32,033 bases of DNA from NCBI GenBank assembly GCA_020832455.1, contig JAFIEQ010000035.1, positions 1-32,033 of the forward strand, in the 5' to 3' direction. Below are positions 6,827 through 31,344 of this stretch, piece after piece. Within the stretch, counting starts at the first letter, position 1. Every line of letters begins with the position of its first letter. This DNA is from Nitriliruptoraceae bacterium. GTDB taxonomy: Bacteria; Actinomycetota; Nitriliruptoria; Nitriliruptorales; Nitriliruptoraceae. The notes below the pieces were generated by a model. That model saw nothing but the letters and a program-made list of their open reading frames with translations. It did not search any database and was not told the DNA's origin. The position numbers and the translations under genes were made by a program.

Positions 6827-6842
6827 CGGATCGTCGAGGTGT

Positions 6843-6866
6843 CGGCCCGCCTGGCAGCACGGGCCG
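6843..6866. terminator. Possible bidirectional hairpin terminator
   Basis: A perfect 7-bp inverted repeat (CGGCCCG / CGGGCCG, 10-nt loop) lies 16 bp after the NERD stop codon and downstream of the convergent minus-strand gene ending at 7032. There is no T-tract, as is common in high-GC actinobacteria, so its function is inferred from position only. Confidence 0.35.
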
Positions 6867-7031
6867 CCGGACTCGCGGTGCACGTGACCACGCGCCACCG
6901 CCCGAACCCGCCGAGGCAGGTGGCAGGCGGCCGCTTCGGTACGCGCATGGCCACCGCCGTGGGGTTCGTCGTCTGGAGTGGCTTGCTGTAGCTGACGCCC
7001 GACGTCCGTGGACGACAGCAGCGATCCCGCC

Positions 7032-8605: not shown

Positions 8606-8822
8606 CGGCTCACGCTACAGCACCCCTTCGTAGGAGCTTCTAGAGCACGCACCTACCTTCGACGCCCGCCCGGTGGCGTTCAGAGCTGCGAGCTACCTGC
8701 GACCGCGACGCGACTTGGCGCTGAAGACCTCTCGGGACCGCGTCGAGATGAACCACGGAGCCGCCGCCATGGTCGGCAACGAGCTGAGCTTCGCGCTCCA
8801 TCCTGGGAGAGTCTCGAACGGC

Positions 8823-11930: not shown

Positions 11931-12056
11931 CGGAGCACGACCCTAGGGATCGCCGACGGACCGATCCAGGATCTACGCGACGAGAACGCCAGCGCCCCGA
12001 CCGAGGTCGTTCCGGCGCGCTACGGCGTGGGTGACGGTTGACGAGCCGGACGAGAG

Positions 12057-14186: not shown

Positions 14187-14315
14187 CTGATCCCCCTTTC
14201 GGAGACCTATCGGCGCGTACGCGTCGCTTCTGAACCTCGATGGTCGCGCCTCGCCATGACCGGGAACGTCGATCGGCGACACGGCCATCGAACCTGGGCG
14301 CAACCGCAGGACCGT

Positions 14316-15005: not shown

Positions 15006-15047
15006 GATGCGACAGCTCGGCCTGGCCAACCGTCGCTACTCACCATG

Positions 15048-16181
15048 TCAGGACTCCCCGTACCCCGGACGCGGCTCAGCCGCCAGCCGGAGGCCGACGA
15101 ACACGCCCTCAAGCTGGCGCGGGTCGAACGCCTCGACGCGCCCCGTCCCTGCCCACAACATCGTGCCGGGCGGCTGATAGCGATACAGCCCGCGGGCGCC
15201 GGCAGCGGTCCTCTCGGGTCGGCGCGGCCATTGCAGTCGCTCAGCAACAAGCGCGAGGTTCCTGTCTCCATCGGTGTCCGGCAGCGTTCGCTGCCACCAC
15301 CGCTCCAGATGTGTCAGCGCCGGCAGGGCGGCTCGCTTGTCGTTGTTGCAGCGGCGATCCGCGAGGACCAGGTTGTCCAGGCGGTCGTCCGGCCATCGCG
15401 CCCAGGGGAGGAAGTGATCAACCTCCCACGGTCCACGCTCGCCACGACAGTAGAAGCAGCGGCCCTGCTGCATCTCGAGAAGCGGCTGGCGTAACGCCGC
15501 CAACGACGAGCGTTCGCTGCCGAAGAGGAACGCCTCCAGCCGCAGCTCATCGACGTCGCCCTCGTTCCGACGCGCGACATGCAGGAGCCACTCGCGTTCG
15601 ATGACCGGACGGATCAACCCGTTGAGCGCTGCGAGGTGCGACGCGGCGCCATCCACAAGGCGGAGTCGATCGTCGAACCCGGCACGTTGCACCTGCGCGG
15701 GCGACACCCCGTCGTCCCACGTCACGTCGTAGATGAACCGATCATCGATGGCGCTCGAGCCGGTCCCGAAGCGCTGCAGCAGCACGATCGGGTACCGCAT
15801 CACCGTGGCGACGACCTCCTGCTCGAGCTGGACGATGTCCGCAGGACGCTTCCGCCGAACCACGTCCAGCGGCTCGTGTGCTGACACCCCCAGGCGTTCG
15901 CGCAGCTCCGCGATCTTCACCACCAGGTCGCGCTGCCTTGACTGCCGCAACGGGCCCCTTTCGGTGTACGGGCGAGCTTGGCGCCAGTACAGCGCGAAGA
16001 CGCGACGCCCGAGATCGCGTCCCGACAGGTGCTCGGGAGGGGTGCCGTCTGGGTGGGTCTCCTCGACCACTGCGTCCAACATCGCCAGCAGCAGCGCGTA
16101 CTTGTACGACGTCGTGAAGCTGCCGGTACCCAACAACGCCAGCAGCTTCTCGCCGAACGCGATCGCTGACGTCTCACTCAA
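15048..16181 (-). CDS. HNH endonuclease family protein
   Basis: The C-terminal third holds an HNH domain: RCFYC (residues 241-245), EVDHFLPW (253-260) with the catalytic Asp-His pair, DNLVLADRRCNNDK (269-282). It is a metal-dependent DNA nuclease fold. The N-terminal part has a helical block, LALLGTGSFTTSYKYALLLAMLD (core TSYKYALLLAML), which I recall from related actinobacterial HNH proteins and which fixes the true N-terminus. The frame is open to 16586, but the TTG at 16179-16181 has a GAGAGG Shine-Dalgarno eight bases upstream and starts just before this block, giving 377 aa. It is the first gene of the minus-strand run that includes the GIY-YIG-like and NERD-UvrD genes. Confidence 0.82.
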   Translation of the reverse strand: MSETSAIAFGEKLLALLGTGSFTTSYKYALLLAMLDAVVEETHPDGTPPEHLSGRDLGRRVFALYWRQARPYTERGPLRQSRQRDLVVKIAELRERLGVSAHEPLDVVRRKRPADIVQLEQEVVATVMRYPIVLLQRFGTGSSAIDDRFIYDVTWDDGVSPAQVQRAGFDDRLRLVDGAASHLAALNGLIRPVIEREWLLHVARRNEGDVDELRLEAFLFGSERSSLAALRQPLLEMQQGRCFYCRGERGPWEVDHFLPWARWPDDRLDNLVLADRRCNNDKRAALPALTHLERWWQRTLPDTDGDRNLALVAERLQWPRRPERTAAGARGLYRYQPPGTMLWAGTGRVEAFDPRQLEGVFVGLRLAAEPRPGYGES

Positions 16182-16689
16182 CGACGAGGCCTCTCGCCGG
16201 CGTGGGATTTCGCGCTCAACCCTTTGAACACCAAGATCCTCCCGTTTGCTCGTTGTTCGCCGGATGTGCCGGGAGGCTCTCGCTCTGTGAACAACCTTGC
16301 GAGGAACTACAACTAGCCGCCGAAGGGACGCCCCGTCCAGGTCGGCCCGGGCTGACACATGGATCGAGGGCGAGGACGATCTCGTCTCGGCGCCACGCAG
16401 TACCTGGCCTTTCAGGCCGCGGCATCGTGAGCCCTTCCACGCGAGGTCGGCCTCGATGAACCTAGCGTCGACAGGACTCCCAAGGCCTGCGAGAGGGACC
16501 CACTCGAGCTCAGCTCCTTCGACCTGCGCCGAGTGTTCGAGGCGTAGATCCTTTCGGCTTCCGCCTGGCACGAAGGCCTGCTGCACGGTGCACTAGCTGC
16601 AGATCGGCGGCCCGCCTCACGAGCCAAAGGACGTCACACTCTTTCCGTAGGGTGCATCTCCTGGAAGGCGAGGTCATCCAATAGGGGGT
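16182..16689. other. Divergent intergenic region, lower G+C
   Basis: This 508-bp region separates the HNH gene (leftward) from the T5orf172 gene (rightward). It is visibly poorer in G+C than the flanks. The HNH reading frame remains open through most of it (to 16586), but the translated sequence is basic, without recognisable domain, and has no well-placed Shine-Dalgarno; short plus-strand frames are equally unconvincing. It probably carries promoters of both genes and perhaps debris of a lost gene. I see no clear promoter consensus, repeat or RNA gene. Confidence 0.45.
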
Positions 16690-16695
16690 ATGCAC

Positions 16696-18504
16696 GTGGC
16701 AAGATTGAAGCTCAACGAAGGGCACCTCAGCTTCGACGGCAGCACGGTCACCTTGGAGTTCACCGGCATTCTGACCCAAACCGTGAAGAAGCAGTCATCT
16801 CCGAGGATGATCCCGGTCAGCGACATTCTCGATGTCGAGGTCAGTGACGGCGGACGAATGACCCCCGGCTATGTGCGATTCCACCGTGCCAGCACGGCCC
16901 GGAACGAGGACTTCAAGGCCGCCTTCGATTGCGACACCATGACGTTCCTGCAGGCCAAGCGGCCGCCCGAACTTGATGTTGTCATCAATGAGATCCGGAG
17001 ACGGCTGGCCAGCGCGCCGCCGCTGCCGCCTTCGGCGAATCCTTCGACGCCGCCCCCTTCCGCGCCTCCGCCGACCTCGAGGCCGGCACCGATCTCGACA
17101 AACGCTCCCGGTTCGCCATCTGAGGCAACCGAGCCTGTCCCCTCGGCTCCAACGGAAGCTCCCCCGCGGTCGGCGACTGGCACCGAACCCGTGGAAGGTA
17201 CTGCCGACGAGCGTCCGGGACGAGGCGGCCTCTTCAAAACCAAGCGCCGCCAAGAAGCTGAGGCTGAACTCGACCGATTGCGCGAGATCGTGGAGCGCGC
17301 TGGTGGCGCGGAGGCACCGGGTCTCGCACGCGAGATCGCTCGACTCCGATCGGAACTCGCCGAGGTTTCGCGGCAGCTGACATCGACGCGCCAGGAGCTG
17401 GCAAAAGCTCAGACAGACGTGATCGAGACCCGAGAAGCCGCCTTACTGCAGGAGGTCGGAATCTACGAATTCCGACACCGACTGGAGGATGCGGCCGCCT
17501 ACAAGGGACGCCTTGCGGTGCTCTCCGACCAGTTCAAGACCCTTGCCCGCAACGGTGGCGCCGTCGTGGGTGCAACAACCTGGCAGGTCAACGGATCGGC
17601 CGCCCAGGGGCGCAAGATGGTGAAGGACTTCTCCAAGCTGATGTTGCGGGCATACAACAACGAGGCTGACAACCTCGTCCGCACGATGAAGCCATACAAG
17701 CTGGAATCCGCTCTCTCGCGGCTTAGCAAGTCGAGGGAAACGATCGCCAAGCTCGGGAAAACCATGTCGATCGAGGTGACAGACGAGTACCACCGACTGC
17801 GCACCGCCGAACTGGAACTGACCGCCGATTACCTAGCAATGGTTGCGGAGGAGAAGGAACGGGCTCGCGAGGAGCGTGAACGTCTCCGCGAGGAGCGCAA
17901 GGCGATGGCCGAATTGAAGCGCGAGGAGGAGCGCCTTCAGAAGGAAGCGAACCACCGGCGCAGCGTGCTCGCCCGACTCCAGACGTCAGGCGCCTCCCCC
18001 GAGGAATTGGAGGCTGCTCAGGCGGCCCTCGGAGAGGTCGAGTCGGCGCTGCAAGGCGTGCTTGACCGCGAAGCCAACGTTCGAGCGGGCTACGTCTACG
18101 TGATCTCGAACGTCGGCTCGTTCGGCGAGGGCATCATCAAGGTCGGGATGACACGCCGACTCGAACCGATGGACCGCGTCCACGAACTCGGGGACGCATC
18201 TGTGCCGTTCAAGTTCGACGCGCACGCCCTGGTGTTCTCTGAGGATGCCGTCGGACTTGAGGCCGACCTCCACCGGGCCCTGGCCGCCAAGCGGGTCAAC
18301 CTTGTGAACCTCAGGCGCGAGTACTTCTACGCGAGCCCGGCCGAGATCCAAACGCTTATGGAAGCCCGTCACGGTCAGCTGCTGCAGTTCGATGAGCTTC
18401 CGGAGGCTGTCGAGTGGCACCAGTCGGCCACGATCCGCCGAAAGGAACATGGTGACGTGGCCCTACCAGCAGGGGCCGTACCGGGCGGAGTGACCTCCCG
18501 TTGA
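16696..18504 (+). CDS. DUF4429-DUF4041-T5orf172 (GIY-YIG) multidomain protein
   Basis: A 602-aa protein with clear domain order. Residues 1-105 resemble DUF4429 (LSFDGSTVTLEF ... GYVRFHR). A Pro/Ser/Thr-rich linker spans about 108-170. Coiled coil occupies about 183-250, then a DUF4041-like block about 250-385 (VGIYEFRHRLEDAAAYK), a second charged coiled coil about 385-460, and a C-terminal T5orf172 domain of the GIY-YIG superfamily (GYVYVI at about 465-470, IIKVGMTRR, then ADLHRAL and RREYF). Such proteins are typical of phages and defence loci. An AGGGGG Shine-Dalgarno sits seven bases before GTG 16696 but only one base before ATG 16690, so I prefer the GTG. Confidence 0.85.
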   Translation: MARLKLNEGHLSFDGSTVTLEFTGILTQTVKKQSSPRMIPVSDILDVEVSDGGRMTPGYVRFHRASTARNEDFKAAFDCDTMTFLQAKRPPELDVVINEIRRRLASAPPLPPSANPSTPPPSAPPPTSRPAPISTNAPGSPSEATEPVPSAPTEAPPRSATGTEPVEGTADERPGRGGLFKTKRRQEAEAELDRLREIVERAGGAEAPGLAREIARLRSELAEVSRQLTSTRQELAKAQTDVIETREAALLQEVGIYEFRHRLEDAAAYKGRLAVLSDQFKTLARNGGAVVGATTWQVNGSAAQGRKMVKDFSKLMLRAYNNEADNLVRTMKPYKLESALSRLSKSRETIAKLGKTMSIEVTDEYHRLRTAELELTADYLAMVAEEKERAREERERLREERKAMAELKREEERLQKEANHRRSVLARLQTSGASPEELEAAQAALGEVESALQGVLDREANVRAGYVYVISNVGSFGEGIIKVGMTRRLEPMDRVHELGDASVPFKFDAHALVFSEDAVGLEADLHRALAAKRVNLVNLRREYFYASPAEIQTLMEARHGQLLQFDELPEAVEWHQSATIRRKEHGDVALPAGAVPGGVTSR

Positions 18505-18690
18505 TTGGAACCATGACGATTGGCGGCCGACAAGGTTCATGGCGCGGCAGGCAGTGCCAGTTCTGGGCTGACGGTGACTGCGCGGGCCGCGCTGCTTCCT
18601 CAAGGGCGGGACCCTGCGAATTGGCCCAGGGCTGCCTCTGGAAGAAGTCCCGGCTTGCTCTCCACCCATCACTACGCTCAGCCTCCGACG

Positions 18691-20634
18691 ATGAGGATTG
18701 GCGTGGCTGAGCTGTACTGGGGGACGACGAGCGTGTTCGTCGAGCACGCCAAGCAGAACGAGATCGCGGAGCGGCTCCGCACCGCGTTCTTCGACTACTA
18801 CGGCTGGAACCCGCCAGAGAGCGAGGTCCGCTCGTGGCGCAACTCGCTGAAGGCGCTCTCCAACGCCATCGAGATCGGCGGGCTCCTCGATCACGGGCTG
18901 CTGCTCGAGTACCAGCTGCCGCTGACCTCCAAGCGCCTCGACGCGATGATCACCGGCCACGACCGCGACGGGCGCCCGGCTGCCGTGATCGTCGAGCTCA
19001 AGCAGTGGAGCGACGACGTCCAACCCTCACGTGTCGAGGACCTGGTCACCGTCCGCTATGGCAAGGGTCTGAAGGAACAGCTGCACCCCTCCGCACAGGT
19101 CGGGCAGTACCAGCAGTACCTGGCCGACGCGCACGAGACCTTCCACGACGGCAACGTGCGGCTCCGTGCCTGCGCGTACCTGCACGACTTCACCCACGAC
19201 GACCAGTCCGAGCTGCTGTCGCCGCGGCACGCGAACACCCTGGGCATCTACCCGTTGTTCGCCGGCGACCGCGTGACGGAACTCGTGCAGTTCCTGGACG
19301 ACCACCTCGGCGACGGCCGCGGGCTCGGCGTGCTGCGCAGCGTCCGCGAGGGCAAGTACCGCCCGCACAAGAAGCTGCTCGACCACACCGCCGCCATGAT
19401 CCAGGGCGAGCCCGCCTACGTCCTTCTCGACGAGCAGCAGGTGGTCTTCAAGTCGATCCTCGCCAAGGTCGCCGAGGCACGCGACCTCGACACCAAGGCG
19501 GTGTTCGTCATCCGTGGCGGACCCGGCACGGGCAAGTCCGTCATCGCGCTGAACCTCGTCGCCGAGCTCGCAGCCAACGGCTACGCCGTCCACCACGCGA
19601 CCGGGTCATCGGCCTTCACCAACACCGTCCGCAAACGGGTCGGCACCCGGGCTGCCGGCATGTTCAAGTTCTTCAACTCCTACCTCAACGCGGAGGACGA
19701 CACGCTCGACGTGCTGGTCTGCGACGAGGCACACCGCATCCGCAAGTTCTCCTGGGACCGGTTCCGCAAGAAGAACGCCATCGACCCCGACCGCCCCCAG
19801 ATCGACGAGCTGCTGTCGGTCGCGCGGGTCAGCGTGTTCTTCATCGACGACATGCAGGCCGTGAAGCGCGACGAGATCGGCAACAGCGACGACATCGAGC
19901 GGCTCGCCGCCCACCACGACATCGAGGTCCACGAGTTGGAGCTCGAGGCGCAGTTCCGCTGCGGCGGCTCGGACGGCTACGTGCGGTGGATCGAGTCGAC
20001 GCTCGGCATCCGTCGTACGGCGAACGCGCTGTGGACCGGCGACGACAACTTCGACTTCGACATCGTCGACTCCCCCGAGGAGCTGGAAGCGCTGATCCGC
20101 CACAAGGCCGAGGAAGGCCACAGCGCACGCATGGTCGCGGGCTACTGCTGGCCCTGGTCCGATCCCCGCGACGACGGCACCTTGTCCCCCGACGTCCAGG
20201 TCGACGGGTGGAGCCGCCCCTGGAACGCGCGACCGAACGCGACCGGGCTGGCCGAGGGCATCCCGAAGTCGTACTTCTGGGCCAGCGAGCCGGGCGGGAT
20301 CGACCAGGTCGGCTGCATCTACACCGCACAGGGCTTCGAGTTCGACTACGCCGGCGTCATATTCGGCAACGACCTCGTCTACCGCCCACGCGAGGGCTGG
20401 GTCGGCCGCAAGGAGTTCTCCCACGACGGCGGACTCAAACGCGGCACCAGCGACGAGGACTTCACACGGCTGGTCAAGAACACCTACCGCGTGCTGCTCA
20501 GCCGCGGGCTCAAGGGCTGCTACGTCCACTTCACCGACGACAAGACCCGCGACTTCGTCGAGAGCCGCATCGACCAGATCGCGGTGCAGCTCGCTGCCGA
20601 ACGGGGCGCCGGCTACGCCGACGCCGAACGATGA
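18691..20634 (+). CDS. DUF2075/Schlafen-like helicase with N-terminal PD-(D/E)XK-like domain
   Basis: The 647-aa protein has an SF1-type motor of the DUF2075 family: Walker A GGPGTGKS (276-283), Walker B VCDEAHR, an arginine-bearing AQFRCGGSDGY and the late motif YTAQGFEFDYAGVI. Its N-terminal 230 residues include SWRNSL (48-53), KRLDAMITG (81-89), VIVELKQW (99-106) and VGQYQQYL (137-144); Asp84, Glu102, Lys104 and the following glutamine fit a PD-(D/E)XK nuclease core. So it may both translocate and cut nucleic acid. ATG 18691 has no Shine-Dalgarno, while GTG 18703 follows TGAGGA at five bases and would trim four residues. It is 186 bp downstream of the T5orf172 gene on the same strand. Confidence 0.88.
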   Translation: MRIGVAELYWGTTSVFVEHAKQNEIAERLRTAFFDYYGWNPPESEVRSWRNSLKALSNAIEIGGLLDHGLLLEYQLPLTSKRLDAMITGHDRDGRPAAVIVELKQWSDDVQPSRVEDLVTVRYGKGLKEQLHPSAQVGQYQQYLADAHETFHDGNVRLRACAYLHDFTHDDQSELLSPRHANTLGIYPLFAGDRVTELVQFLDDHLGDGRGLGVLRSVREGKYRPHKKLLDHTAAMIQGEPAYVLLDEQQVVFKSILAKVAEARDLDTKAVFVIRGGPGTGKSVIALNLVAELAANGYAVHHATGSSAFTNTVRKRVGTRAAGMFKFFNSYLNAEDDTLDVLVCDEAHRIRKFSWDRFRKKNAIDPDRPQIDELLSVARVSVFFIDDMQAVKRDEIGNSDDIERLAAHHDIEVHELELEAQFRCGGSDGYVRWIESTLGIRRTANALWTGDDNFDFDIVDSPEELEALIRHKAEEGHSARMVAGYCWPWSDPRDDGTLSPDVQVDGWSRPWNARPNATGLAEGIPKSYFWASEPGGIDQVGCIYTAQGFEFDYAGVIFGNDLVYRPREGWVGRKEFSHDGGLKRGTSDEDFTRLVKNTYRVLLSRGLKGCYVHFTDDKTRDFVESRIDQIAVQLAAERGAGYADAER

Positions 20635-21021: not shown

Positions 21022-22317
21022 TCATGGGGTGACCGTGGGGAGCTTGGTCCAGTCGGGCTTGCCGGCGTAGAGCAGCACGCGGATGCGCCAGTGGACGAAG
21101 TTCCGCAGGCCGAACGCGACGCGCTTGATGCGCTTGGCGAGGCCGTTCATGGTCTCGGTCGGGCCGTTGGAGACCTGTGCCTGGTGCCAGGCGGCGATCT
21201 GGGTGCGCCACTTGCGCATCGTGCGGCCGAGCTGGCGGATCTCGGGCGGGCAGTCGCGCCAGCGCATGTCCTCAGAGAGCTGATCGACCCACTCGAGCGC
21301 GAGCTGCTCGTCGCGGTGGGCGTAGAGCTCACGGACCGCTTCCTTGGCGTGCCAAGCGACGGTGACCTCGCCCTTGGGATCGCCAGCCTTGAGCAGCCCG
21401 GTCAGCTTGCCCTTCGAGCGCTCGTCGAGGCGTTCCTGGGCGATGACCAGCAGCTTGCGGGCCCGGTAGAGCGGATCGGCCTTCCGGCCCCGATGCCCGA
21501 GCGTCTCGTTCTGCACGCGGCGTCTCACCTCGTCGAGCTTCTGGCCGGCCAACCTCACGAGGTGGAACGGATCGGCGACCTGGACCGCGTCGGGCAGCAT
21601 CGTGTCGAACACCGATCGGTAGGGCCCGGACATGTCCAGCGTCGCCCACTTGATCTGCTCACGCCACGCGGGGGTGCGTTCGGCCAGCCAGCGGGTCGCA
21701 GGAGCCGCTTCGCGGCCCTCGACGACGTCCAGCAGCTGGCCGGCGCCGACGTCAACGATCGAGGTGGACCACTGCTTGCGTCGCCACTTGCCCCGCTTGA
21801 CGAACAACGTCTCATCGAGCCCGAGCGCGGTGACCGAACCGATCCGCGCGGGGTCGTCCACGAGGCGTGCTCCGTAGGCGATCACGGCCCGGTTGACCGT
21901 GTGCCAGTCGCAACCCAGATCGGCAGCGACCTCCGCCACGGTCCGGCCGTGAGCTCCGACCTGGAAGGTCACCCACCGGCCCGCCCGATCCGTCAACCCC
22001 AGCCGCGGCGCCGCGATCGCCCGGGCGGTCTCGGTCCACGATCCGGCCGGACATGTTGGCTCGGGACAGTGCCAGCGGCGCTTGCGCCACAGCAGCCGAG
22101 CGGGACGGCCGAACGCCGGCAGATCCGTGAGCAGCACCGGATCGCGATCCTTGATCCGTGCCCGCGTCCCGCAGCCTCGGCATCGCTCGACGTGCTCGAG
22201 GGCGGTCTCGATCGCGACCACGATCGCGGCGTCAGGATGCTCGTCGATGACCCCGAGGATGGTCACCGCCGGGAGTCCCACGAGCAGTTGGCACATACGC
22301 GTAGCATCAGACTCCAC
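21022..22317 (-). CDS. ISL3-family transposase
   Basis: The 431-aa protein has the ISL3 layout: an N-terminal zinc-binding module (C46-x2-C49 and C84-x4-C89), a helix-turn-helix (GRTVAEVAADLGCDWHTVNR, about 124-143) and a DDE catalytic domain with GLDET (Asp168), LDMSGPYRSVF (Asp228) and a late glutamate in SNGPTETMNGLAKRIK, followed by the family hallmark RVAFGLRNF. It cuts and joins DNA at the element's terminal repeats. The start is GTG at 22315-22317, with an in-frame ATG seven codons later as an alternative. No frameshift or stop interrupts it. Confidence 0.97.
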   Translation of the reverse strand: MESDATRMCQLLVGLPAVTILGVIDEHPDAAIVVAIETALEHVERCRGCGTRARIKDRDPVLLTDLPAFGRPARLLWRKRRWHCPEPTCPAGSWTETARAIAAPRLGLTDRAGRWVTFQVGAHGRTVAEVAADLGCDWHTVNRAVIAYGARLVDDPARIGSVTALGLDETLFVKRGKWRRKQWSTSIVDVGAGQLLDVVEGREAAPATRWLAERTPAWREQIKWATLDMSGPYRSVFDTMLPDAVQVADPFHLVRLAGQKLDEVRRRVQNETLGHRGRKADPLYRARKLLVIAQERLDERSKGKLTGLLKAGDPKGEVTVAWHAKEAVRELYAHRDEQLALEWVDQLSEDMRWRDCPPEIRQLGRTMRKWRTQIAAWHQAQVSNGPTETMNGLAKRIKRVAFGLRNFVHWRIRVLLYAGKPDWTKLPTVTP

Positions 22318-22393
22318 AGGGGTCCTGTTCGAGATGTGGTCCTAGACACCCACAGCCTCGCAGGGCCCCTGTGCTGCGCCTACAACCCCCGCA

Positions 22394-22415
22394 CCCCGCT
22401 TACTTCCGAAGCCCC
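22394..22415 (-). repeat. Right terminal inverted repeat of the ISL3 element
   Basis: On the minus strand it begins GGGGCTTCGGAAGTAAGC and ends in four G. The ion-channel frame reads through it for five codons (GLRK-type tail) before stopping at 22400-22402. Confidence 0.92.
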
Positions 22416-22423
22416 ACCATGAG
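22416..22423. repeat. Right 8-bp target-site duplication (accatgag)
   Basis: Exact copy of 20992-20999, directly next to the right end of the insertion sequence. Confidence 0.95.
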
Positions 22424-22933
22424 CAGCACGAGGTTCGCCGAGAAGGCGATGACCAGCTTCTCCCGGCGGTCCTTCAGGACCTCGACGAACTTCTCCATCG
22501 CATCCGAGTACCGCGCGAGCTTGAGCATCCGGAACAGGCGCACGAGCCGCAGCGCGCGAAGGAACCGAAGGTCGAGGCCGATACCCATTGCCGCGAGGTA
22601 GAAGGGCAGGATCGCCAATAGATCGATCACCACCAGGAACTTCAGCGCAAAGCGAAAGCGACCGCGGATCGGCGCGCTGTACTCGGGAGCCTCCACCGCC
22701 GACCAGACGCGCGCCACGTACTCGACGGTGAAGATGGCAACCGACACGATCTCGAGCCAGTTGAACGCTTCGGCGAACCGCTCGAAGACCGGGTCGACCG
22801 TCTCCAGCATGACCGCGGTCACGTTGACGGCGATGAGGATCAGGATCGCCCAGTCGACCCGTCGTCCTGCTCGTCCACCGAGCCTCGGCTCGAACAACTC
22901 GTACACGCGACGTCGGTAGCTTCGGTAGGTCAC
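22416..22933 (-). pseudogene. Voltage-gated ion channel, N-terminal part (S1-S5), interrupted by ISL3 element
   Basis: This half encodes the voltage-sensor domain of a Kv-like channel: S1 (WAILILIAVNVTAVMLET), S2 (LEIVSVAIFTVEYVARVW), S3 (FLVVIDLLAILPFYLAA) and an arginine-studded S4 (LRFLRALRLVRLFRMLK), then the beginning of S5 (KLVIAFSANLVLLMV). The GTG at 22931-22933 is preceded by an AGGGG Shine-Dalgarno seven bases upstream and is preferred over the ATG six codons earlier. The insertion sequence splits the gene at codon 172; with the element and one 8-bp repeat removed it continues in frame into 20996-20733 as a 258-aa channel with the filter TVGYGD. A truncated sensor alone is unlikely to conduct ions. 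Confidence 0.93.
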
Positions 22934-23117
22934 CCGTGCACCCCTACGCATCGTTGGGCGGAGTCCCGGAGACCCCCGACGACACGGCAAAGCCTCGCGG
23001 GCTCGGATGCCTCGCGCGGCGCGTGCTGCCCCCGGCCAACCCTGCGCACCATCATGGCCTATCCATCGGATCCATCCGGCGTGACCGGAAACGGCGAGGC
23101 CAGCTCGGGAGCACGAG

Positions 23118-24521
23118 CTACAGGTCCACTTCCGGCGACGCAGACGGGGATGAACTCGCTGCATCAGGGTCGGCCGTAGGTGGTGCCTCCCAGGACTGCC
23201 GCGAGGGCTGGCCCTCGTCGGTTGGCTTCGACTCACTGCGCTGCCCACGCAGTTTCGGCGCCTTGGGTCGCCACTCCGTGAGTTGTTGAAACAGTTCCCG
23301 GTAGAAGTCGATGGCCTGCTGACGGGTGTCGGTGATGAACCCACCCTGCCCGGAGCTCCGCTTGATGCCCATAGGCCGAGCCAGAGACAACTCGAACTCT
23401 CGCGGCTCTCGCTTTGGGTCGTCGCTCAGCAGGACCTTCTTCTCATCTTCTCGTGCCTCGCCGAGCAGGACAGCGGTCGTTCGCTTCAAGCCGACGAACT
23501 TGGTCTCGATCCTCAGATCATCTGGCGCATCCTTCAACTGGCGAAGGATCCAACGCACCCTGGTATCCGGCCGTCCCTCGCCAGGGGCCTTGATACTCAC
23601 GCTGGTGGTGACCATCTGTGCGCGAAGGTCAGCAGTGAGCGACAGGGGCCCCACAGCGTCGGGGATGCGCAGACGCATCGACAACACTCCCCTGTCGACC
23701 AACTCGTCCTTGGTCACCTCGAGACGTGTTGCGAGGTCGGTCTTGACGCGATCGGGAACCACATCGACCCCGGTCTCCTGCGTGAATCCGAGTGCGACCC
23801 AGTGGACGAACTGTTCCCAGCGCCGGGAGATGTCACCTACCTCGGCCTGGCGCTTGTTCAGCGCGTTGTGACGCGCTCCGTCACGCACCTTCACCCACGA
23901 GGGACCCATGTCACCGAGCTCGGCGACCCCCGATCGCTCATGGGACAGGTAGGCGATCAGTTCGCTCAGGATCCAGGCCTGATCAGGGTCGGAAACTCCT
24001 CGGTAGTCATGCTGGAGGATGGCCTCGGTGACGATCCGCCACCACGACAGCTGCCACACCTGCACCTTGCGCAGCTTGCTCTTCGGCACCTCGACCGGCA
24101 CGTCATCCGCGCCGCCCAGGATGTTGTTGTCGATGATCAGCACGCCGTCGAAGCCCTCGCGGATCGCCGCGTCCACGTACTTCAGCACCTGCTCGGTGTT
24201 GGTCTGGTTGCTGCCTGTCTTGACCTCAACCAGGGCGCTCCATCGACGCTGACCACTATCCGCGATGATCACCCCATCTGGCCGGACCGTGCCGCCGCTC
24301 CCGTCGTCGAGAGACACCTCGACGAAGGTCTCCAGTTTCGTTCGTTTGCCTTTCGGCGCGCCGAGATCACCGACGAGCTCACGTCCGAACTCCGGCACGG
24401 CCTTCATTACCGAAAGGAGCGCCGAGGTGGCGCGCTGTTCCTGCTCCCGTGCCCCCTTGATGCCGGCCGTCGGGATCAGCCTCGCCGGATGCCACGTCGT
24501 CGTCTCGGCCTTGCTCGCCAT
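23118..24521 (-). CDS. PD-(D/E)XK-type nuclease-like protein
   Basis: The 467-aa protein shows a probable PD-(D/E)XK nuclease core near its N-terminus: an acidic residue in AREQEQRATSALLSVM (about 24-39), GTVRPDGVII with Asp82, ALVEVKTG with Glu99 and Lys101, and EQVLKYVD with a following Gln (111). This order matches restriction-endonuclease-like folds. The remaining 300 residues are unrecognised and end in a Ser/Pro/Ala-rich tail. The ATG at 24519-24521 follows GGCGGGG; the ORF extension to 24581 is not needed. It is monocistronic and divergent from the one-TM gene at 24859. Defence is likely from context, but I cannot name a system. Confidence 0.65.
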   Translation of the reverse strand: MASKAETTTWHPARLIPTAGIKGAREQEQRATSALLSVMKAVPEFGRELVGDLGAPKGKRTKLETFVEVSLDDGSGGTVRPDGVIIADSGQRRWSALVEVKTGSNQTNTEQVLKYVDAAIREGFDGVLIIDNNILGGADDVPVEVPKSKLRKVQVWQLSWWRIVTEAILQHDYRGVSDPDQAWILSELIAYLSHERSGVAELGDMGPSWVKVRDGARHNALNKRQAEVGDISRRWEQFVHWVALGFTQETGVDVVPDRVKTDLATRLEVTKDELVDRGVLSMRLRIPDAVGPLSLTADLRAQMVTTSVSIKAPGEGRPDTRVRWILRQLKDAPDDLRIETKFVGLKRTTAVLLGEAREDEKKVLLSDDPKREPREFELSLARPMGIKRSSGQGGFITDTRQQAIDFYRELFQQLTEWRPKAPKLRGQRSESKPTDEGQPSRQSWEAPPTADPDAASSSPSASPEVDL

Positions 24522-24858
24522 GTACGCCCCGCCAGTGGAAGCCCTCGTTTCCGCCGCGACAGTAGGCGGACGGCGCACCACTCGCCTTCGAGGCTGTCAA
24601 CCGGACAGCCGGTATCGGCGGATCCGAAGCCGGTGGCCGAAGTACTCGCTTGACGCGCCCCCAAAGAGTTCCAACCGGCCTTGGCGAGATACGTGAGGGT
24701 CAAAACCGTGATTTCGTGCGACCGTGGGTCTCAAGGTTGGTTCAGGAGAGCGGACAACAGTGAGATTGCTAGTGGCCAGCCGGAACTGCTCAACCGCCCA
24801 TGGTGGGCAGTAGCGCCGCTTCAGGGGGCGTGTCGGAGCTGTCTGCGACACTCCCGGC
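24522..24858. other. Divergent intergenic region
   Basis: These 337 bp separate the nuclease-like gene from the one-TM gene and should contain promoters for both. G+C is lower than in the flanks. Short minus-strand frames cross it (for example one ending at 24597), but none has a domain or a good Shine-Dalgarno. I find no convincing -35/-10 pair, repeat or RNA gene. Confidence 0.45.
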
Positions 24859-25841: not shown

Positions 25842-28800
25842 ATGCTGGCAGAGATGGGGAACGCAGTGGCCCGAGCACATCGTCCCGATAATTCGTTGCT
25901 CTACGAGGTCGCGCACGAATGGGTGGCCACGTGCCTCCACGACGATGGCTCTCTCTTCCGAGCGCGTGATCGGCTCTGGATTCAAGAGAACTCCCACGAG
26001 CTCCACGGGCTGTTCAACGAGCAGCCGGACGAGTCGTCTGACCCGTTCCTGGTCAAGCTCGGGCGCCAACTTGCGGATGCGAACGATGATCTCGTTCTGC
26101 TCTTCGCCGAGATGCTCTATATCCACCTACTGATCGCACGCGACATCGGCGGCTCGGCCAAGCGCGACAACCTCGATGCAGTGCTGGGACAGATGCGCGA
26201 TCCAGTCGAGGTGCCAGAGGACCTCGACAGCGAACTCGATGCCGGACTCGTGCTGACGGGAGTGGCCTACAAGACCTACCGGCCACAGCAGCTGTGGTTC
26301 TTCATCGACGTGATGATCACACTGAAGGAGCTGGACGAGCCAGGTCGCAGCGAGGTCGTCTCGGACCCCTGGAAGTTCCGCGACTTGGTCGACCGCGTCC
26401 CGATCGAGGCCGCTTACGCGCAGCGGAACGCACTACTGCACCTCGTGCACCCAGACACGTTCGAGGACTGCGTCTCGCGCGATCACAAGGTGCAGATGAG
26501 CACCGCCTTCAGCCACCTGGCGAGGACCGACCAGGACGATGTCGATCGAGCCCTGCTGCAGATCCGCGAGGCGCTCGAGGCGGACGCTGGCCACCCCATC
26601 AACTTCTACGCGGAGCCGTACCGCTCGCAGTGGGCTCGCGAGCGGATCCGAGCATGGGAGATGCTCGAGTTAGCGGGAAGAGCGATCGTTGCCTGGGACG
26701 ACTTCGATGAGCAGGAACGGGGTTACAAGCTCGAACTGGCCGAAGGCCTGGGAGAGCTGTACCGCAGCGACCGGCTGACGGGCTGGGGTCTGGACGTCGT
26801 GCGCGCCGTCGGACGAACCAACCTCGTCAACTTCCGTCCGATGGGGCGACTCCGTGACCTCGCCAAACGCGAGCCGGATGCCTTCGATGCCGCCGTCGCA
26901 GGGCTCGTCGACGCTGATGACGCCGTGGTCGCGATCGATGGCTTCGCTGCGTACATCGGCGACACGGTCGGAGCTCGCGGAGCGCGGCTGAGTATCGCTG
27001 CGACACTGCTCATGGGCGTCGATCCGACGCGTTTCGTGCCCTGGCGTGCACAGGCGACGGTCACCTACGAACGGCTGCTCGGGACGGAACTCGAGGAGGG
27101 TGGCTCGGACGCGGCTCACTACGCCAGCTACCTCGAGATGCTCGATCTCGTCGTAGAGGAGCTCAAGCGGCGCGGCGTCGAGCTCCGCGACCGCCTCGAG
27201 GCGCAGTCGATGCTCTGGGTGGTGGCGGGCCGGTCGCTGGACGAGGAGCCGTTCTCCTCACTCTCCGGTGCGCAGAGGAACAAGCTCGCCAAGTGGAGGG
27301 GCGAGGAACTCGCTGAGGACGAGGAGGACACGACCGCATCGCAGGAGCAATGGCGGATGCTCCGGCTTCGCCAGATCACCGACGCATCGGAACAGCTCGG
27401 CCCGCGGGCCCCGCAGCTCGACCGCGACCGAACGGAGCAAGAGGCGAGGGCAGCGCTCCAGGAGCTTCGACGTGGTCGGGATGCCTCTGCGTTCGCGTCG
27501 CGGTACCGGGAGATGGAGCACGCCCTGCCCCATACCCGCAAGGGGGCGCATCAGACGTTCCTCGGTGCGCTGAGCAACAAGGCTGACGATCCCGTCGAGG
27601 TTGCGACGGTGCTCGCTGATGCATTCACCGCACCGAGTACGCGCGCCGAGGTCAGCGAACGGATCGAGCCCCTCGTCGAGCTCGCTGAACGCACCGGAAC
27701 AGCCCACTCGCCCTCGGCCGGGATGGCACCACTCGCAGCCTCGGCCTTCTGGCACCTGCAGAGCGATCAGTGGCTTCCGCTGTACCGCAACGTCGAGGAG
27801 GCGTTGAGCTGGTGGGACTGGCTGCCTGGCTACGAGACGGCCACCGAGCGCTACCTCAACTACCTCGATGTCTTCTCGGGCCCGGACACGACCCTGGAGA
27901 CCCTCCACGCGTTCGGACGTATCCAGACTGGCTGGTTCCCCGGCCTCGACCCCAGCCTCGTCGAGCGGCTCGCGGCCAACCAGCAAGCTGAACCAGCAGA
28001 CACCCCCGACGTCCGACGGAACCTGGAACACGTCCTCGCCGATCTGAAGGTCCTCGATCGCTGTATCGGTGAGTCGATGACCAACCTGCTAGGACAGCGC
28101 TTGGAGACCGTCACCTCCGCACGCGACGGCAGGGGCGCGCTCGATGCGTTCGTGGCGTGGCGCCCAGGGAGGAGCCTCGCGAAGCCGCCACCTGATGTGC
28201 GCGTCTGGATCACTGCGGACGGCGTCGCGATCGGAGTCCATCCAGGTGGTGGGCGGGAACGGCATGCGGAAGCGGCGCGCATCGCGCGGGAGCGCCGACC
28301 AGATGACGTCCAGATCCTCGCGATCACGCAGGATGGTCGGGGAGCCCGCGATCTCAGCGCAGTCGACGATCCAGGCGACGACGAGTTCCTGGTCGGCCGC
28401 TGGTACCCAGGTTCGACGATCCTCGGGCGACCGGACATCGTCGACGACCTCACGGCACTGGTGACCCGACTGAAGCCCCTGCTCGGTGCGTGGCTTTCCA
28501 GTCTCGGTGGCGGATCAGTGCCGATCACCGACGCGGCCGGCGACGAGCAGCTCGCTGCCGAGGTCGACCGCTTCCAATCCGAGCTCTCCTATCCGACCGC
28601 CAAGGATCGCCAGCGCATCGAAGCCAGGACCCAGCTTCGGGAGGTGCTCACCCCGGAGGGTCTGGACGGCTTCGACCTCGACGGGATACGACAGGTCGTC
28701 AACTCGCACGCGGGGGGAAGGCCAGGCCCCCAGGCGGTCCTGAACACCACCATCAACGAGGCAGATGCGGAAGGGCTCGATCGGCTCTTCGGCGCGATCC

Positions 28801-30068
28801 GCTACCTGCTGTGGGATGGAGACCTCTCGGAGGCCGAGCGCATCGACCGAATCCTCGACAAGCAGGATCTCGGCTTACCAGGCCTGGGCGAGGCCGTCAT
28901 CGTCAAGCTGCTCGCGACCGCACACCCGGATCGCTGGGTGCCGGCGTTCCCGCTCCACGGTGACATGGGCAAGCTGCGCCACCTTGAGGTGCTCGGCCTG
29001 CCGAACCAGCTCCTCGGGACACCAGGCGAGCAGCAGGTCGCTGCGAACGACGCGATCCGCGAGCGGCTCGAGCCCTTCTTCCCCGGCGACACCTGGGGGA
29101 TGAAGGAGTTCGTGTACTGGCTCGCCAGTCGCGAGGATGTCGAAACGAAGGTCGCGGACATCGACCTGATCGAGAAGGCCGCGCGCGAACTCTTCGTCTC
29201 CGTCGACTTCCTCCGCGAGATCGTCGACCTGCTGCGTGAGAAGAAACAGGTCATCCTCTACGGGCCACCAGGGACGGGCAAGACCTACCTCGCGCGTCGG
29301 CTCGCCCGCGCATTGGTCAACGAGGACGAGGGTCGCTACCGACTCGTGCAGTTCCACCCCTCGTACTCCTACGAGGACTTCTTCAAGGGATACCGACCGA
29401 TCACCGGTACCGACGGGCAGCTGAGCTACGAACTGCGCCAAGGCCCCTTCGCGCGGATGTCGGAGATCGCCGAGGCATCACCCGCCGCGGAGCACGTGAT
29501 GATCATCGATGAGATCAACCGGGCGAACCTGCCGAAGGTGTTCGGGGAGTTGCTCTACCTGCTCGAGTACCGCGATGACCCGGCCTACACGCAATACCGA
29601 CCTCACGAGCCGTTCACCGTGCCCGAGAAGCTCTACCTGATCGGCACGATGAACACCGCCGACCGCTCGATCGCGCTGGTCGATGCTGCGATGCGTCGGC
29701 GGTTCCACTTCGTACCGTTCTTCCCACACGAGGGTGAGGTGGCCGGGCTGCTCCGCAGGTGGCTCGAGGCCCGACAAGGGCCGCGTTGGGTCGCCGACCT
29801 GCTGGATCAGGTGAACGACGAACTCAGGACCGATCTGGGTGGCCCCCATCTGCAGATCGGGCCGAGCTACTTCATGGTCGACGACCTCGACGAGCCCAAG
29901 GTCGAACGCATCTGGAAGTACAGCATCCACCCCTACATCGAGGAGCAGCTGTTCGGCCAGCAGGAGCGGATCGACCACTACCGGTTCGACGCGGTCATGC
30001 GACGTCACTGGGAGGATCACGTCGACGAGCTCGACCAGAAGGTCGGTGACCACGATGACCTCGGTTGA
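25842..30068 (+). CDS. mcrB: McrB-like AAA+ GTPase with very large N-terminal region
   Basis: A 1408-aa protein. The C-terminal quarter is an McrB-type AAA+ motor: Walker A GPPGTGKT (1141-1148), HPSYSYEDFFKGYRP, Walker B MIIDEINRAN (1220-1229), and GTMNTADRS (1268-1276), the McrB signature, then DAAMRRRF. The N-terminal 1,100 residues are helical and acidic; two sub-parts stand out, a mixed alpha/beta block about 785-885 and a block about 944-1060 containing LPGLGEAVIVKLL, a hairpin-like motif seen in other McrB fusions. These regions probably recognise the target (modified DNA or another cue). It is coupled to mcrC by a 14-bp overlap. The ATG at 25842 lacks a Shine-Dalgarno; GTG 25866 follows GGGGAA and is an alternative. 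Confidence 0.92.
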   Translation: MLAEMGNAVARAHRPDNSLLYEVAHEWVATCLHDDGSLFRARDRLWIQENSHELHGLFNEQPDESSDPFLVKLGRQLADANDDLVLLFAEMLYIHLLIARDIGGSAKRDNLDAVLGQMRDPVEVPEDLDSELDAGLVLTGVAYKTYRPQQLWFFIDVMITLKELDEPGRSEVVSDPWKFRDLVDRVPIEAAYAQRNALLHLVHPDTFEDCVSRDHKVQMSTAFSHLARTDQDDVDRALLQIREALEADAGHPINFYAEPYRSQWARERIRAWEMLELAGRAIVAWDDFDEQERGYKLELAEGLGELYRSDRLTGWGLDVVRAVGRTNLVNFRPMGRLRDLAKREPDAFDAAVAGLVDADDAVVAIDGFAAYIGDTVGARGARLSIAATLLMGVDPTRFVPWRAQATVTYERLLGTELEEGGSDAAHYASYLEMLDLVVEELKRRGVELRDRLEAQSMLWVVAGRSLDEEPFSSLSGAQRNKLAKWRGEELAEDEEDTTASQEQWRMLRLRQITDASEQLGPRAPQLDRDRTEQEARAALQELRRGRDASAFASRYREMEHALPHTRKGAHQTFLGALSNKADDPVEVATVLADAFTAPSTRAEVSERIEPLVELAERTGTAHSPSAGMAPLAASAFWHLQSDQWLPLYRNVEEALSWWDWLPGYETATERYLNYLDVFSGPDTTLETLHAFGRIQTGWFPGLDPSLVERLAANQQAEPADTPDVRRNLEHVLADLKVLDRCIGESMTNLLGQRLETVTSARDGRGALDAFVAWRPGRSLAKPPPDVRVWITADGVAIGVHPGGGRERHAEAARIARERRPDDVQILAITQDGRGARDLSAVDDPGDDEFLVGRWYPGSTILGRPDIVDDLTALVTRLKPLLGAWLSSLGGGSVPITDAAGDEQLAAEVDRFQSELSYPTAKDRQRIEARTQLREVLTPEGLDGFDLDGIRQVVNSHAGGRPGPQAVLNTTINEADAEGLDRLFGAIRYLLWDGDLSEAERIDRILDKQDLGLPGLGEAVIVKLLATAHPDRWVPAFPLHGDMGKLRHLEVLGLPNQLLGTPGEQQVAANDAIRERLEPFFPGDTWGMKEFVYWLASREDVETKVADIDLIEKAARELFVSVDFLREIVDLLREKKQVILYGPPGTGKTYLARRLARALVNEDEGRYRLVQFHPSYSYEDFFKGYRPITGTDGQLSYELRQGPFARMSEIAEASPAAEHVMIIDEINRANLPKVFGELLYLLEYRDDPAYTQYRPHEPFTVPEKLYLIGTMNTADRSIALVDAAMRRRFHFVPFFPHEGEVAGLLRRWLEARQGPRWVADLLDQVNDELRTDLGGPHLQIGPSYFMVDDLDEPKVERIWKYSIHPYIEEQLFGQQERIDHYRFDAVMRRHWEDHVDELDQKVGDHDDLG

Positions 30069-31344
30069 CCCGGTCATCAGCCTACGGGAACACCGGTCCG
30101 CGGAACACGAGCTCACCCGGCAGCAGGTGGCGGCACTGCAGGCGACGGCATCCAAGCTGATCCGGCTTGAGGTGACCGCAGTCACCGACCGCTACCGGGT
30201 CGTTGCGGGCAGTGTCGTTGGGGCCGCGAACGTGGCGGGTGTCCAGGTCCTCGTGCGTCCCAAGATCCCGCTCCGGAACCTGCTGTACCTCCTCGGCGCT
30301 GGCTACGACGACATCCGGTGGTGGGAAGAGACGTTCCCCTACGACCGGGAGCAGGAACTGCTCCCGGCCTTCCTGGCCTTCTTCACGCGTTCTCTGCAGC
30401 GCGCTCTCGGCGTCGGTCTGCTGCGGACCTACCGATGGGAGGAAGAGCGCCTGCCGACGATCCGGGGCCGGCTCGACTTCACGGAGCATCTTCGACGCCC
30501 GGGCCACGACCTCCCGATCGCGTGCCGCTACGAGGAGTTCACCGCCGACAACCAGCTGAACCGCTACCTGCGCGCGGCCGTGCGGCGCGCCCTCTTCGTG
30601 CCTGACGTTCCGGCGGCACTGCGCCGGGTACTTCAAGCTGAACTCGTCCGCTTCGAAGAGGTAGAGGACACGGTGGTCAGGGTGGACGCCCTCGACGGCT
30701 ACGTGCATACGCGCCTCGATGACCACTACCGCACACCACTCGCACTCGCCCGGATCCTGCTGGCAGGTGGGACGATCGCTGACCGCCGTGGCTCGACCGG
30801 TGCGGGAACGTTCGCCATCGACATGAACAGGCTGTTCGAGAACTTCGTCGCCGAACGCCTGCGTCGCTACCTCGCACCCGCGTTCGTCCTCCAGCGAGAG
30901 CCGGTGACAGCGCTCGATGTCGATCGGAAGGTGCGTACGAAGCCCGACATCGTCCTTCGGCGTCGGGACGGGACGCTCGCCTACGTGGCGGACGTCAAGT
31001 ACAAGCTGTCGGGTACCGGTTTCGCCCGTAATCCCGACTACTACCAGTTGCTGGCCTACGCGACGATGATGAACCAGCCGGAGGGGATGCTGATCTACCA
31101 CGACGCCGGTGGCGATGATCCGCTGCCGACGCGGATCTCGGTTCGGAACTCACCGGTCTCGATCACGACGTACCGACTCGACCTCGGCGGAGATCCAGGC
31201 GCGGTCGAGCAGCAGCTCCGCGACCTTGCCGCTTGCATACGCGAGCAAGTAGAGAGTTCGCCAGATGCCATCGCTGTCCAGGGATCAAGCATCGAGTGGC
31301 TTCGAGGTCGGCGCCTCACGCCAGCAGCCAGACCACGACGGTGA
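30055..31344 (+). CDS. mcrC: McrC-like restriction endonuclease subunit
   Basis: The 429-aa protein is the nuclease partner of McrB. The N-terminal beta-rich part includes VRPKIPLRNLLYLL (67-80) and IRGRLDF (136-142), the middle FTADNQLNRYL (162-172), and FAIDMNRLFENFV (253-265) leads into a PD-(D/E)XK core: TKPDIVL (Asp298) and YVADVKYK (Asp313, Lys315), followed by YQLLAYA. In the known complex McrC stimulates McrB GTP hydrolysis and cuts DNA. The ATG at 30055 lies inside the last codons of mcrB (14-bp overlap), which favours coupled translation and a fixed ratio. The much longer open frame upstream is antisense-like and discarded. Confidence 0.95.
   Translation: MTSVDPVISLREHRSAEHELTRQQVAALQATASKLIRLEVTAVTDRYRVVAGSVVGAANVAGVQVLVRPKIPLRNLLYLLGAGYDDIRWWEETFPYDREQELLPAFLAFFTRSLQRALGVGLLRTYRWEEERLPTIRGRLDFTEHLRRPGHDLPIACRYEEFTADNQLNRYLRAAVRRALFVPDVPAALRRVLQAELVRFEEVEDTVVRVDALDGYVHTRLDDHYRTPLALARILLAGGTIADRRGSTGAGTFAIDMNRLFENFVAERLRRYLAPAFVLQREPVTALDVDRKVRTKPDIVLRRRDGTLAYVADVKYKLSGTGFARNPDYYQLLAYATMMNQPEGMLIYHDAGGDDPLPTRISVRNSPVSITTYRLDLGGDPGAVEQQLRDLAACIREQVESSPDAIAVQGSSIEWLRGRRLTPAARPRR

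What the first reader, a model, noticed from the sequence alone, without database searches (positions are those of the whole stretch)
25842..31344. McrBC variant with an about 1,100-residue N-terminal region
Escherichia coli McrB has roughly 160 residues before its AAA+ motor; here there are about 1,100. They include an alpha/beta block (about 785-885) and a block with LPGLGEAVIVKLL (about 1011-1024). Variable N-termini define what McrBC-type systems sense, so this may recognise something other than methylcytosine. The 14-bp gene overlap suggests strict coupling.
Basis: partly seen in the sequence, partly recalled or inferred. Interest (0 to 1): 0.5.

Follow-up and report, generated by a model that had tools for sequence, protein, structure and literature searches.

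The report
McrBC enzyme with stacked swappable heads
A bacterial DNA-restriction motor of the McrBC kind carries, in one gene, two complete N-terminal heads that related bacteria use singly, which suggests a defence enzyme built from exchangeable parts whose targets are not yet identified.

Summary
Window 25842-30068 encodes a 1,408-residue McrB with about 1,100 residues before an intact motor (MNTADRS, Walker A and B). McrC (30055-31344) overlaps it by 14 bp and keeps its D...DxK residues. I found no significant match for residues 1-1100 in Pfam, NCBIfam, PADLOC, PHROGs or PDB sequences.

The region is not one novel block. It is five modules in tandem: A (21-264), B (287-494), C (535-710), D (786-881) and E (911-1094). 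Relatives carry them in other sets before the same motor: A, B, A-B, C-D, C-D-E, C-D-B, B-E, A-B-C-D. A, B, D or E can be the last module, 3-41 residues from the motor. In other relatives A is followed by EVE (a known modified-base reader) or by a recurring unit of about 190 residues. On the motor tree, A-B, C-D, C-D-E, C-D-B and A-B-C-D proteins share one clade with the window.

Best reading: an active McrBC restriction enzyme with two complete targeting heads, [A-B] and [C-D-E], on one motor; ligands unknown. B is modelled confidently and resembles a DNA glycosylase (SsOgg, Z 7.3), only suggestively. C contains a B-type domain by profile comparison. D and E folds could not be tested. Verdict: new variant of a known kind.

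The parts
25842..30068 (+). mcrB-like gene, 1,408 aa, N-terminal heads plus AAA+ motor
25902..26633 (+). module A (residues 21-264), all-helical in the model; N-terminal module of many other McrB proteins; no Pfam match found
   Evidence: AlphaFold pLDDT mostly above 90
26700..27323 (+). module B (residues 287-494), all-helical in the model, GxG...S.LLM core; VIA match to 8-oxoguanine DNA glycosylase 3fhg
27343..27359 (+). candidate internal ribosome-binding site (AGGAG 27343-27347) and ATG (27357-27359, residue 506) at the B/C boundary; would give a 903-aa C-D-E-motor protein. A lead only
27444..27971 (+). module C (residues 535-710); contains a B-type domain by profile comparison
   Evidence: single-sequence model unusable
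28572..29123 (+). module E (residues 911-1094) with LPGLGEAVIVKLL; also occurs without a motor in L021, L023 and L052
29178..29990 (+). AAA+ motor (residues 1113-1383)
29262..29285 (+). Walker A GPPGTGKT (1141-1148)
29499..29522 (+). Walker B MIIDEINR (1220-1227)
29649..29669 (+). MNTADRS (1270-1276), the MNxxDRS signature of McrB motors, NxxD type
30055..31344 (+). mcrC, 429 aa, PF10117; overlaps mcrB by 14 bp if its ATG is the start
30940..31002 (+). McrC nuclease core KPD...VADVKY (D and DxK aligned with E. coli McrC)

Best explanation
It is a McrBC-type, GTP-driven restriction system in a defence island. Its McrB carries two complete targeting heads in tandem, [A-B] and [C-D-E], on one AAA+ motor. 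By analogy with characterised McrBC, the motor assembles as a hexamer, the heads bind a feature of incoming DNA, GTP hydrolysis drives movement along it, and McrC cuts. Shown here: the modular anatomy, the conserved motor and nuclease residues, each head occurring alone before the same kind of motor elsewhere, a B-type domain in C, and placement of the motor in a clade whose members swap these heads. Inferred: that the heads are the target-recognising parts, that the DNA is foreign, and that two heads widen the target range or require coincidence of two features. Not known: what either head binds (a modified base, a sequence or a DNA structure).
For: Motor and McrC residues conserved against E. 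coli. Residues 9-502 align to McrBs of 789-862 aa in which the motor follows; residues 528-1104 are nearly the whole N-terminus of McrBs of 947 and 976 aa (56-74 unmatched residues come first). HMM architectures give A, B, A-B, C-D, C-D-E, C-D-B, B-E, A-B-C-D and A-B-C-D-E before the motor. A, B, D or E can be the last module, 3-41 residues from the motor. In A-motor proteins the slot after A is empty in 11, holds Pfam EVE in L029 and L084, or holds a recurring unit of about 190 residues (12 of 13 pooled slots share it) that also follows C in L130. 54 of 60 loci with a strong motor match also hold McrC, duplicates included. Motor tree: the window lies in a 10-row set (100/99) with A-B, C-D, C-D-E, C-D-B and A-B-C-D members. 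Neighbouring genes include helicase, NERD, HNH, T5orf172 and Schlafen-type domains. That N-terminal domains of McrB homologs set specificity is in PMC7680126 and PMC11090510 (passages and two sections read).
Against: No ligand or reader fold is established for any of the five modules. A and B are all-helical in the model whereas the EVE, YTH and PUA-like readers named in the passages read are beta-rich (my knowledge), so they could be oligomerisation or protein-binding modules. A also occurs without a motor in the fetched DNA (L018, L020, L022; L019 too, but near a contig end), and E does (L021, L023, L052), so neither is tied to restriction. The relatives were found with these modules as queries, so the set says nothing about how common they are among all McrBs. 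I found only one protein with the full A-B-C-D-E order. The deep nodes inside the motor clade are weakly supported. Several divergent motor proteins lack McrC in the fetched DNA (L070, L130, L134; L069).
Confidence: 0.6

Rival explanations
1. Only one module per head reads DNA; the other helical modules (A above all) are a structural collar or oligomerisation platform, so the length adds no second specificity.
For: A precedes many different slot contents: empty, B, EVE, the 190-residue unit, as expected of a constant platform. A and E also occur without a motor.
Against: Eleven A-motor proteins have nothing but A before the motor, so A is their only candidate head; C-D-E proteins exist without A, so A is not needed by the motor.
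Confidence: 0.25
2. It is a sequence-directed, methylase-linked system in the manner of LlaJI: the heads read unmodified sites and a methyltransferase protects the host.
For: L048 (A-B-C-D) is followed on the same strand by a SNF2 helicase gene and a PF01555 DNA methylase gene. The plasmid of L026 (A plus slot unit) has an annotated N-6 DNA methylase about 7 kb upstream on the other strand. PMC11090510 reports McrBC branches associated with DISARM-like genes and with methyltransferases (section read). LlaJI binds DNA site-specifically by a B3 domain (passage in PMC7680126).
Against: No methylase in the 13 other window ORFs scanned with Pfam (3, 10; the first 3.2 kb and small ORFs were not scanned). 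Of 10 neighbour proteins scanned around L045, L046, L048, L049, L050 and L130 one is a methylase, that of L048. The window's contig ends 689 bp past mcrC, so this stays open.
Confidence: 0.2
3. One gene, two proteins: an internal start at residue 506 yields a 903-aa C-D-E McrB besides the full-length form, so mixed hexamers bear one or two heads.
For: ATG506 with AGGAG 9 nt upstream lies at the B/C boundary, and by the stricter motif list it is the only such internal site in the ORF. L048 has an ATG with a GAGGT site at its own boundary (residue 551). The product would be close in length to natural 947- and 976-aa C-D-E ORFs. E. coli mcrB has an annotated short form.
Against: By the wider motif list four of 44 in-frame start codons in the window's head have such a site, L048 has six, and 76 of 1,411 have one over all proteins scanned, so one at the boundary is not unlikely by chance. 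It may be a relic of a fusion.
Confidence: 0.2
4. The protein is a fusion by-product without dual function: C-D-E (or A-B) is a passenger being lost.
For: Relatives in the same motor clade have one head only; the full order is seen once.
Against: The frame is open throughout and every module is recognised by its HMM; L048 also keeps A-B together with C-D.
Confidence: 0.12

Closest known systems
E. coli K-12 McrBC (DUF3578/ADAM head)
   Same: AAA+ motor with Walker A/B and MNTADRS, McrC with D...DxK, adjoining genes that overlap by 1 bp
   Different: E. coli McrB has about 200 residues before the P-loop, with one DUF3578 head (PF12102 match); here about 1,100 residues in five modules, with no detectable DUF3578
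A-B-AAA McrBs of Actinomycetota, Chloroflexota and Acidobacteriota (e.g. Salsipaludibacter albus L054, Propionicicella superfundia L072)
   Same: residues 9-502 and the motor align, McrC follows in most
   Different: lack C-D-E
   Same: residues 528-1389 and 534-1391 align through the motor at 38% and 37% identity
   Different: lack A-B
A-B-C-D-AAA McrB (L048)
   Same: tandem heads in the same order
   Different: E not detected; SNF2 and methylase genes next door
EVE-McrB and TgMcrB (YTH) systems
   Same: reader domain in front of the same kind of motor; in L029 and L084 an EVE domain occupies the slot after module A
   Different: the window has no EVE, YTH, SRA or ASCH match
CoCoNuT systems
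   Same: McrB-like motor with a long N-terminus
   Different: CoCoNuT motors have NxD and long coiled coils (PMC11090510); this one has NxxD, and its A-B part is modelled as many short helices, 25 residues at most

Membership tests
McrBC (Type IV restriction) | AAA+ motor with Walker A, Walker B and MNxxDRS | tested here: met
   motif definition from PMC7680126 passage
McrBC (Type IV restriction) | adjacent McrC with PF10117 and PD-(D/E)xK residues | tested here: met
McrBC (Type IV restriction) | N-terminal domain that reads modified DNA | tested here: inconclusive
   no known reader by Pfam, NCBIfam, PADLOC, PHROGs or PDB sequence; folds of C, D, E not modelled
McrBC (Type IV restriction) | GTP-dependent cleavage of modified DNA | not testable with these tools
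   needs enzymology
DUF3578/ADAM reader (module D considered) | sequence match to PF12102 or to the E. coli McrB N-domain | tested here: inconclusive
   no PF12102 match; hhalign of D against one E. coli sequence gives nothing, a weak test because the PF12102 family could not be collected
EVE/YTH/SRA/ASCH (PUA-like) readers | Pfam match in residues 1-1104 | tested here: not met
   no such match at E up to 5 in four segments; the same library does find EVE in L029 and L084. A fold relation is not excluded for C, D, E
HhH-GPD DNA glycosylase (modules B, E considered) | fold match | tested here: inconclusive
   VIA: 3fhg, Z 7.3, rmsd 4.3 A, 164 aligned of 207, model 277-465; below the Z 8-13 caution level; Foldseek finds nothing; E not modelled with confidence
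HhH-GPD DNA glycosylase (modules B, E considered) | sequence profile match to Nth-type HhH-GPD | tested here: not met
   hhalign probability 0.1% for B and for E against 27 sequences
CoCoNuT | NxD motor motif | tested here: not met
   MNTADRS is NxxD
LlaJI-like methylase-linked McrBC | linked DNA methyltransferase | tested here: inconclusive
   none in the 13 other window ORFs scanned, but the contig ends 689 bp after mcrC

The most novel reading that the evidence does not exclude
A dual-head restriction motor whose helical modules A, B, C and E are diverged copies of one DNA-glycosylase-like (HhH) base-probing domain, used as readers without glycosylase activity. Two different heads on each subunit would let the hexamer demand two DNA features at once, or switch between one- and two-headed forms through an internal start.
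Probability: 0.13. Interest if true: 0.8.

Novelty: new variant of a known kind. Interest (0 to 1): 0.5.

Why it matters
McrBC specificity is known for only a few N-terminal domains (my reading of the passages seen and my own knowledge). By record titles, several of them metagenome bins, module A fronts McrB-type motors in nine phyla, and Pfam had no match for it where it was scanned, so whatever it reads is a widespread, uncharted target. The natural series A, A-B, C-D-E, A-B-C-D and A-B-C-D-E on related motors makes it possible to test directly which module sets specificity and whether two heads act as alternatives or together.

Tried and rejected
Module D as a diverged DUF3578/ADAM reader: suggested by eye from strand order. 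Not supported: no Pfam match, no PDB profile match to McrB, hhalign of D against E. coli McrB-N gave nothing, and a single-sequence AlphaFold job gave mean pLDDT 39.8 and was not searched further. PF12102 rang in 0 of 149 phylum genomes and 0 of 14 control genomes although K-12 McrB matches it directly, so that search proves nothing.

All helical modules as copies of one domain: only B-C is solid (hhalign 68%, score 37.4, 0 of 100 column shuffles, best shuffle 18.5; best of 15 profile pairs). B-E (6%, score 24.6, best shuffle 21.8) and A-E (1.8%, 20.8, best shuffle 19.6) are marginal; B-A (18.3) is reached by 6 of 100; pooling B with C did not raise E (4.6%) or A (0.5%).

HhH-GPD by sequence: no. 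Foldseek against PDB and viral structures: nothing at E 0.001 or below. The model's C-D-E part has low confidence, so absence of matches there means nothing. The 49 other VIA rows shown fall on the low-confidence part.

First genome-contig scan with the single sequence found no relative. Viral collection: A-B in one IMG/VR contig (L053); pattern scans found no C-D and no E. No match to residues 1-1089 in the phage records. Own genome: no second copy. Internal start: kept as a lead only.

The slot unit after A: 12 of 13 pooled slots belong together; L134 does not. Its link to EVE is unproven (5.6%).

Literature: seven searches in an open-access library. I saw listings, the outline with abstract, two sections and passages of PMC11090510, and passages of PMC7641849, PMC7680126, PMC12458937 and PMC12707154. 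None of what I read describes these modules. PMC11090510 says that the canonical McrBC branches are left for a separate paper, so they may already be known to its authors.

Rows dropped before the 54-row motor tree: L054, L056, L060, L062, L076, L082 (duplicates of other loci, frameshifted or without a motor), proteins whose motor match spans under 200 residues, and proteins with the motor on a separate ORF.
Full report
Observation. The ORF at 25842-30068 and mcrC at 30055-31344 are real and intact. Pfam finds AAA_5 at 1137-1288 and McrBC (PF10117) in the partner. The best PDB sequence matches cover only the motor (1109-1372, E. coli McrB 7vsr/6ut6). Residues 1-1089 match no PDB sequence at E 10. 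In four segments (1-500, 501-783, 784-916, 907-1104) Pfam returns only one chance-level row (PF25063, E 0.27), PHROGs only weak rows (best E 0.037) and NCBIfam none; PADLOC rows lie in the motor. The start codon is uncertain by up to eight codons.

Anatomy from relatives. A search of 101 related genomes with residues 1-1089 found 12 with a match, own genome included. In four same-family McrBs (ORFs of 789-862 aa), the match to residues 9-502 or part of it is followed within about 30 residues by the motor. Residues 503-1104 alone were found in 1 of 66 class genomes (own) and, at E up to 0.01, in 14 of 396 phylum genomes including weak ones. There they form nearly the whole N-terminus of McrBs of 947 and 976 aa (37-38% identity over 900 columns through the motor), or parts of others. 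Module HMMs gave the boundaries: A 21-264, B 287-494, C 535-710, D 786-881, E 911-1094, motor 1113-1383. A conserved-pattern scan of the genome collection brought 32 loci, by record title from Actinomycetota, Chloroflexota, Acidobacteriota, Planctomycetota, Cyanobacteriota, Bacillota, Bdellovibrionota and Candidatus Binatota; the plasmid search (28 records) added Pseudomonadota, with motors seen in Rhizobium and Sinorhizobium.

Grammar. Among 54 proteins kept for the motor tree the head types are A-B 19, A plus another unit 15, A alone 11, C-D-E 2, and one each of A-B-C-D-E (window), A-B-C-D, C-D-B, C-D, B-E, B and C. These were collected with the modules as queries, so they are not a census. 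In a sample of 396 phylum genomes the A-B profile was found in 27 (A, B or both), C-D in 7 and E in 7, the own genome included each time. The last module before the motor can be A (13-39 residues away in 11 proteins), B (3-34 in 20 of 25 rows, duplicates included), D (27, 41) or E (15-19 in 4). In the other 17 A rows the slot after A is 166-219 residues. Two carry a Pfam EVE domain there (L029, E 1.6e-8; L084, E 3.2e-9). Of 13 further slots that I pooled, 12 share one unit by sequence and L134 does not; the pooled profile matches the stretch behind C in L130 (hhalign 99.6%), and its link to EVE is unproven (5.6%). A also occurs without a motor in the fetched DNA (L018, L020, L022; L019 lies near a contig end), and E does in L021, L023 and L052.

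Motor history. In the motor tree (54 rows, 280 columns) the window lies in a starred set of ten (100/99): four A-B, two C-D-E, and one each of C-D, C-D-B, A-B-C-D and the window. Head labels need 21 changes against a shuffled mean of 29.8, 0 of 200 as low. So related motors carry different heads; whether the long form is ancestral or fused late is not resolved.

Folds. AlphaFold on residues 1-1104, with 30 relatives that cover A and B only, gives A-B at pLDDT mostly above 90, all helical, and the rest at block means of 27-60. Foldseek finds no PDB or viral match at E 0.001. VIA-align, looking again at Foldseek's candidates, ranks first the 8-oxoguanine DNA glycosylase 3fhg over model 277-465 (module B): Z 7.3, rmsd 4.3 A, 164 aligned of 207. 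That is below the level the tool calls trustworthy for helical folds, but it spans nearly the whole glycosylase and is the only one of the 50 rows shown on the well-modelled part. B has a conserved G.G.R....S.LLM core: window residue 380 is G in 20 of 27 rows, 378 in 14 of 27, and 387 is S or A in 25 of 27. E has LPGLGEAVIVKLL. Both recall a helix-hairpin-helix (a motif I recall, from no call), yet sequence profiles of B and E do not match Nth-type HhH-GPD proteins. Profile comparison shows a B-type domain in C (hhalign 68%, E 4.9e-5 for one comparison, 0 of 100 shuffles); B-E and A-E are marginal.

Function. The motor keeps GPPGTGKT, MIIDEINR and MNTADRS, and McrC keeps KPD and DVK aligned with E. 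coli. 54 of 60 loci with a strong motor match have McrC, duplicates included; of the six without, L024, L057 and L078 stop at contig ends, while L070, L130 and L134 show none. L069, whose motor match was too weak for that count, shows none either. Nearby window genes are defence-like: NERD, a double GTPase, a PLD-ResIII-DUF3427 helicase, UvrD-NERD, HNH, DUF4041/T5orf172 and a Schlafen-g3 helicase. I therefore take it as an active restriction system with two targeting heads. The targets are unknown, and whether the heads act as alternatives or together is inference.

Internal start. ATG at residue 506 has AGGAG nine bases upstream and lies between B and C; L048 has a similar site at its boundary. 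With a short motif list it is the only internal site in the ORF; with a wider list four of 44 in-frame starts in the window's head qualify, so this is a lead only. It is worth a test because E. coli mcrB has an annotated short form.

Known or new. The kind is known: McrBC with exchangeable N-terminal domains (PMC11090510, PMC7680126 and PMC7641849, parts read). What I did not find in print within seven searches are these modules, their grammar or a tandem-headed McrB. That library lacks most subscription papers, and one group announces further McrBC work. I score it as a new variant of a known kind.

Noticed in passing
window 3270-20634: Defence-like gene cluster upstream: NERD ORF, double-GTPase-2 ORF, PLD-ResIII-DUF3427 helicase, UvrD-NERD, HNH endonuclease, DUF4041/T5orf172 protein beside a Schlafen-group-3 helicase. 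A glucose-6-phosphate dehydrogenase lies at 3270-4976.
   Followed up: partly
window 21022-23344: An Ion_trans (PF00520) ORF at 22400-23344 (-) lies next to an ORF at 21022-22317 (-) that looks by eye like a transposase; the channel gene may be cut by the insertion. Not tested.
   Followed up: no
window 23118-24581 (-): 487-aa protein with only very weak nuclease-like hits (Tox-REase-7 E 0.031; PADLOC REase_II E 0.014); may be another uncharacterised restriction gene.
   Followed up: no
L130:6253-9924 (+) (G050, same class): 1,223-aa protein with a distant module C, then a stretch matching the 190-residue slot unit, a further region and a divergent AAA+; no McrC found in the 14-kb stretch.
   Followed up: partly
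L021:6275-7408, L023:8145-8981, L052:7641-8528: Stand-alone proteins with module E; L021 has zinc-ribbon matches below Pfam's cut-off at its N-terminus and L023 a similar Cys pattern by eye; L052 lies on a conjugative Paenarthrobacter plasmid. Function unknown.
   Followed up: partly
L018, L019, L020, L022: Module A in ORFs without a motor in genomes of the same class (L018's contig is a Euzebyales bin, L082), so A may have a use outside McrBC; L019 lies near a contig end.
   Followed up: no
L026, L079, L136, L073, L132, L133, L135, L137-L139, L027, L066: A recurring 183-208-residue unit between module A and the motor (12 of 13 pooled slots), with PUA/EVE-like motifs by eye; in the eight of these scanned Pfam shows no domain there over its cut-off (lists of some were cut at 25; L026 has DUF7609 at E 0.17), and the profile scores 5.6% against EVE.
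   Followed up: partly
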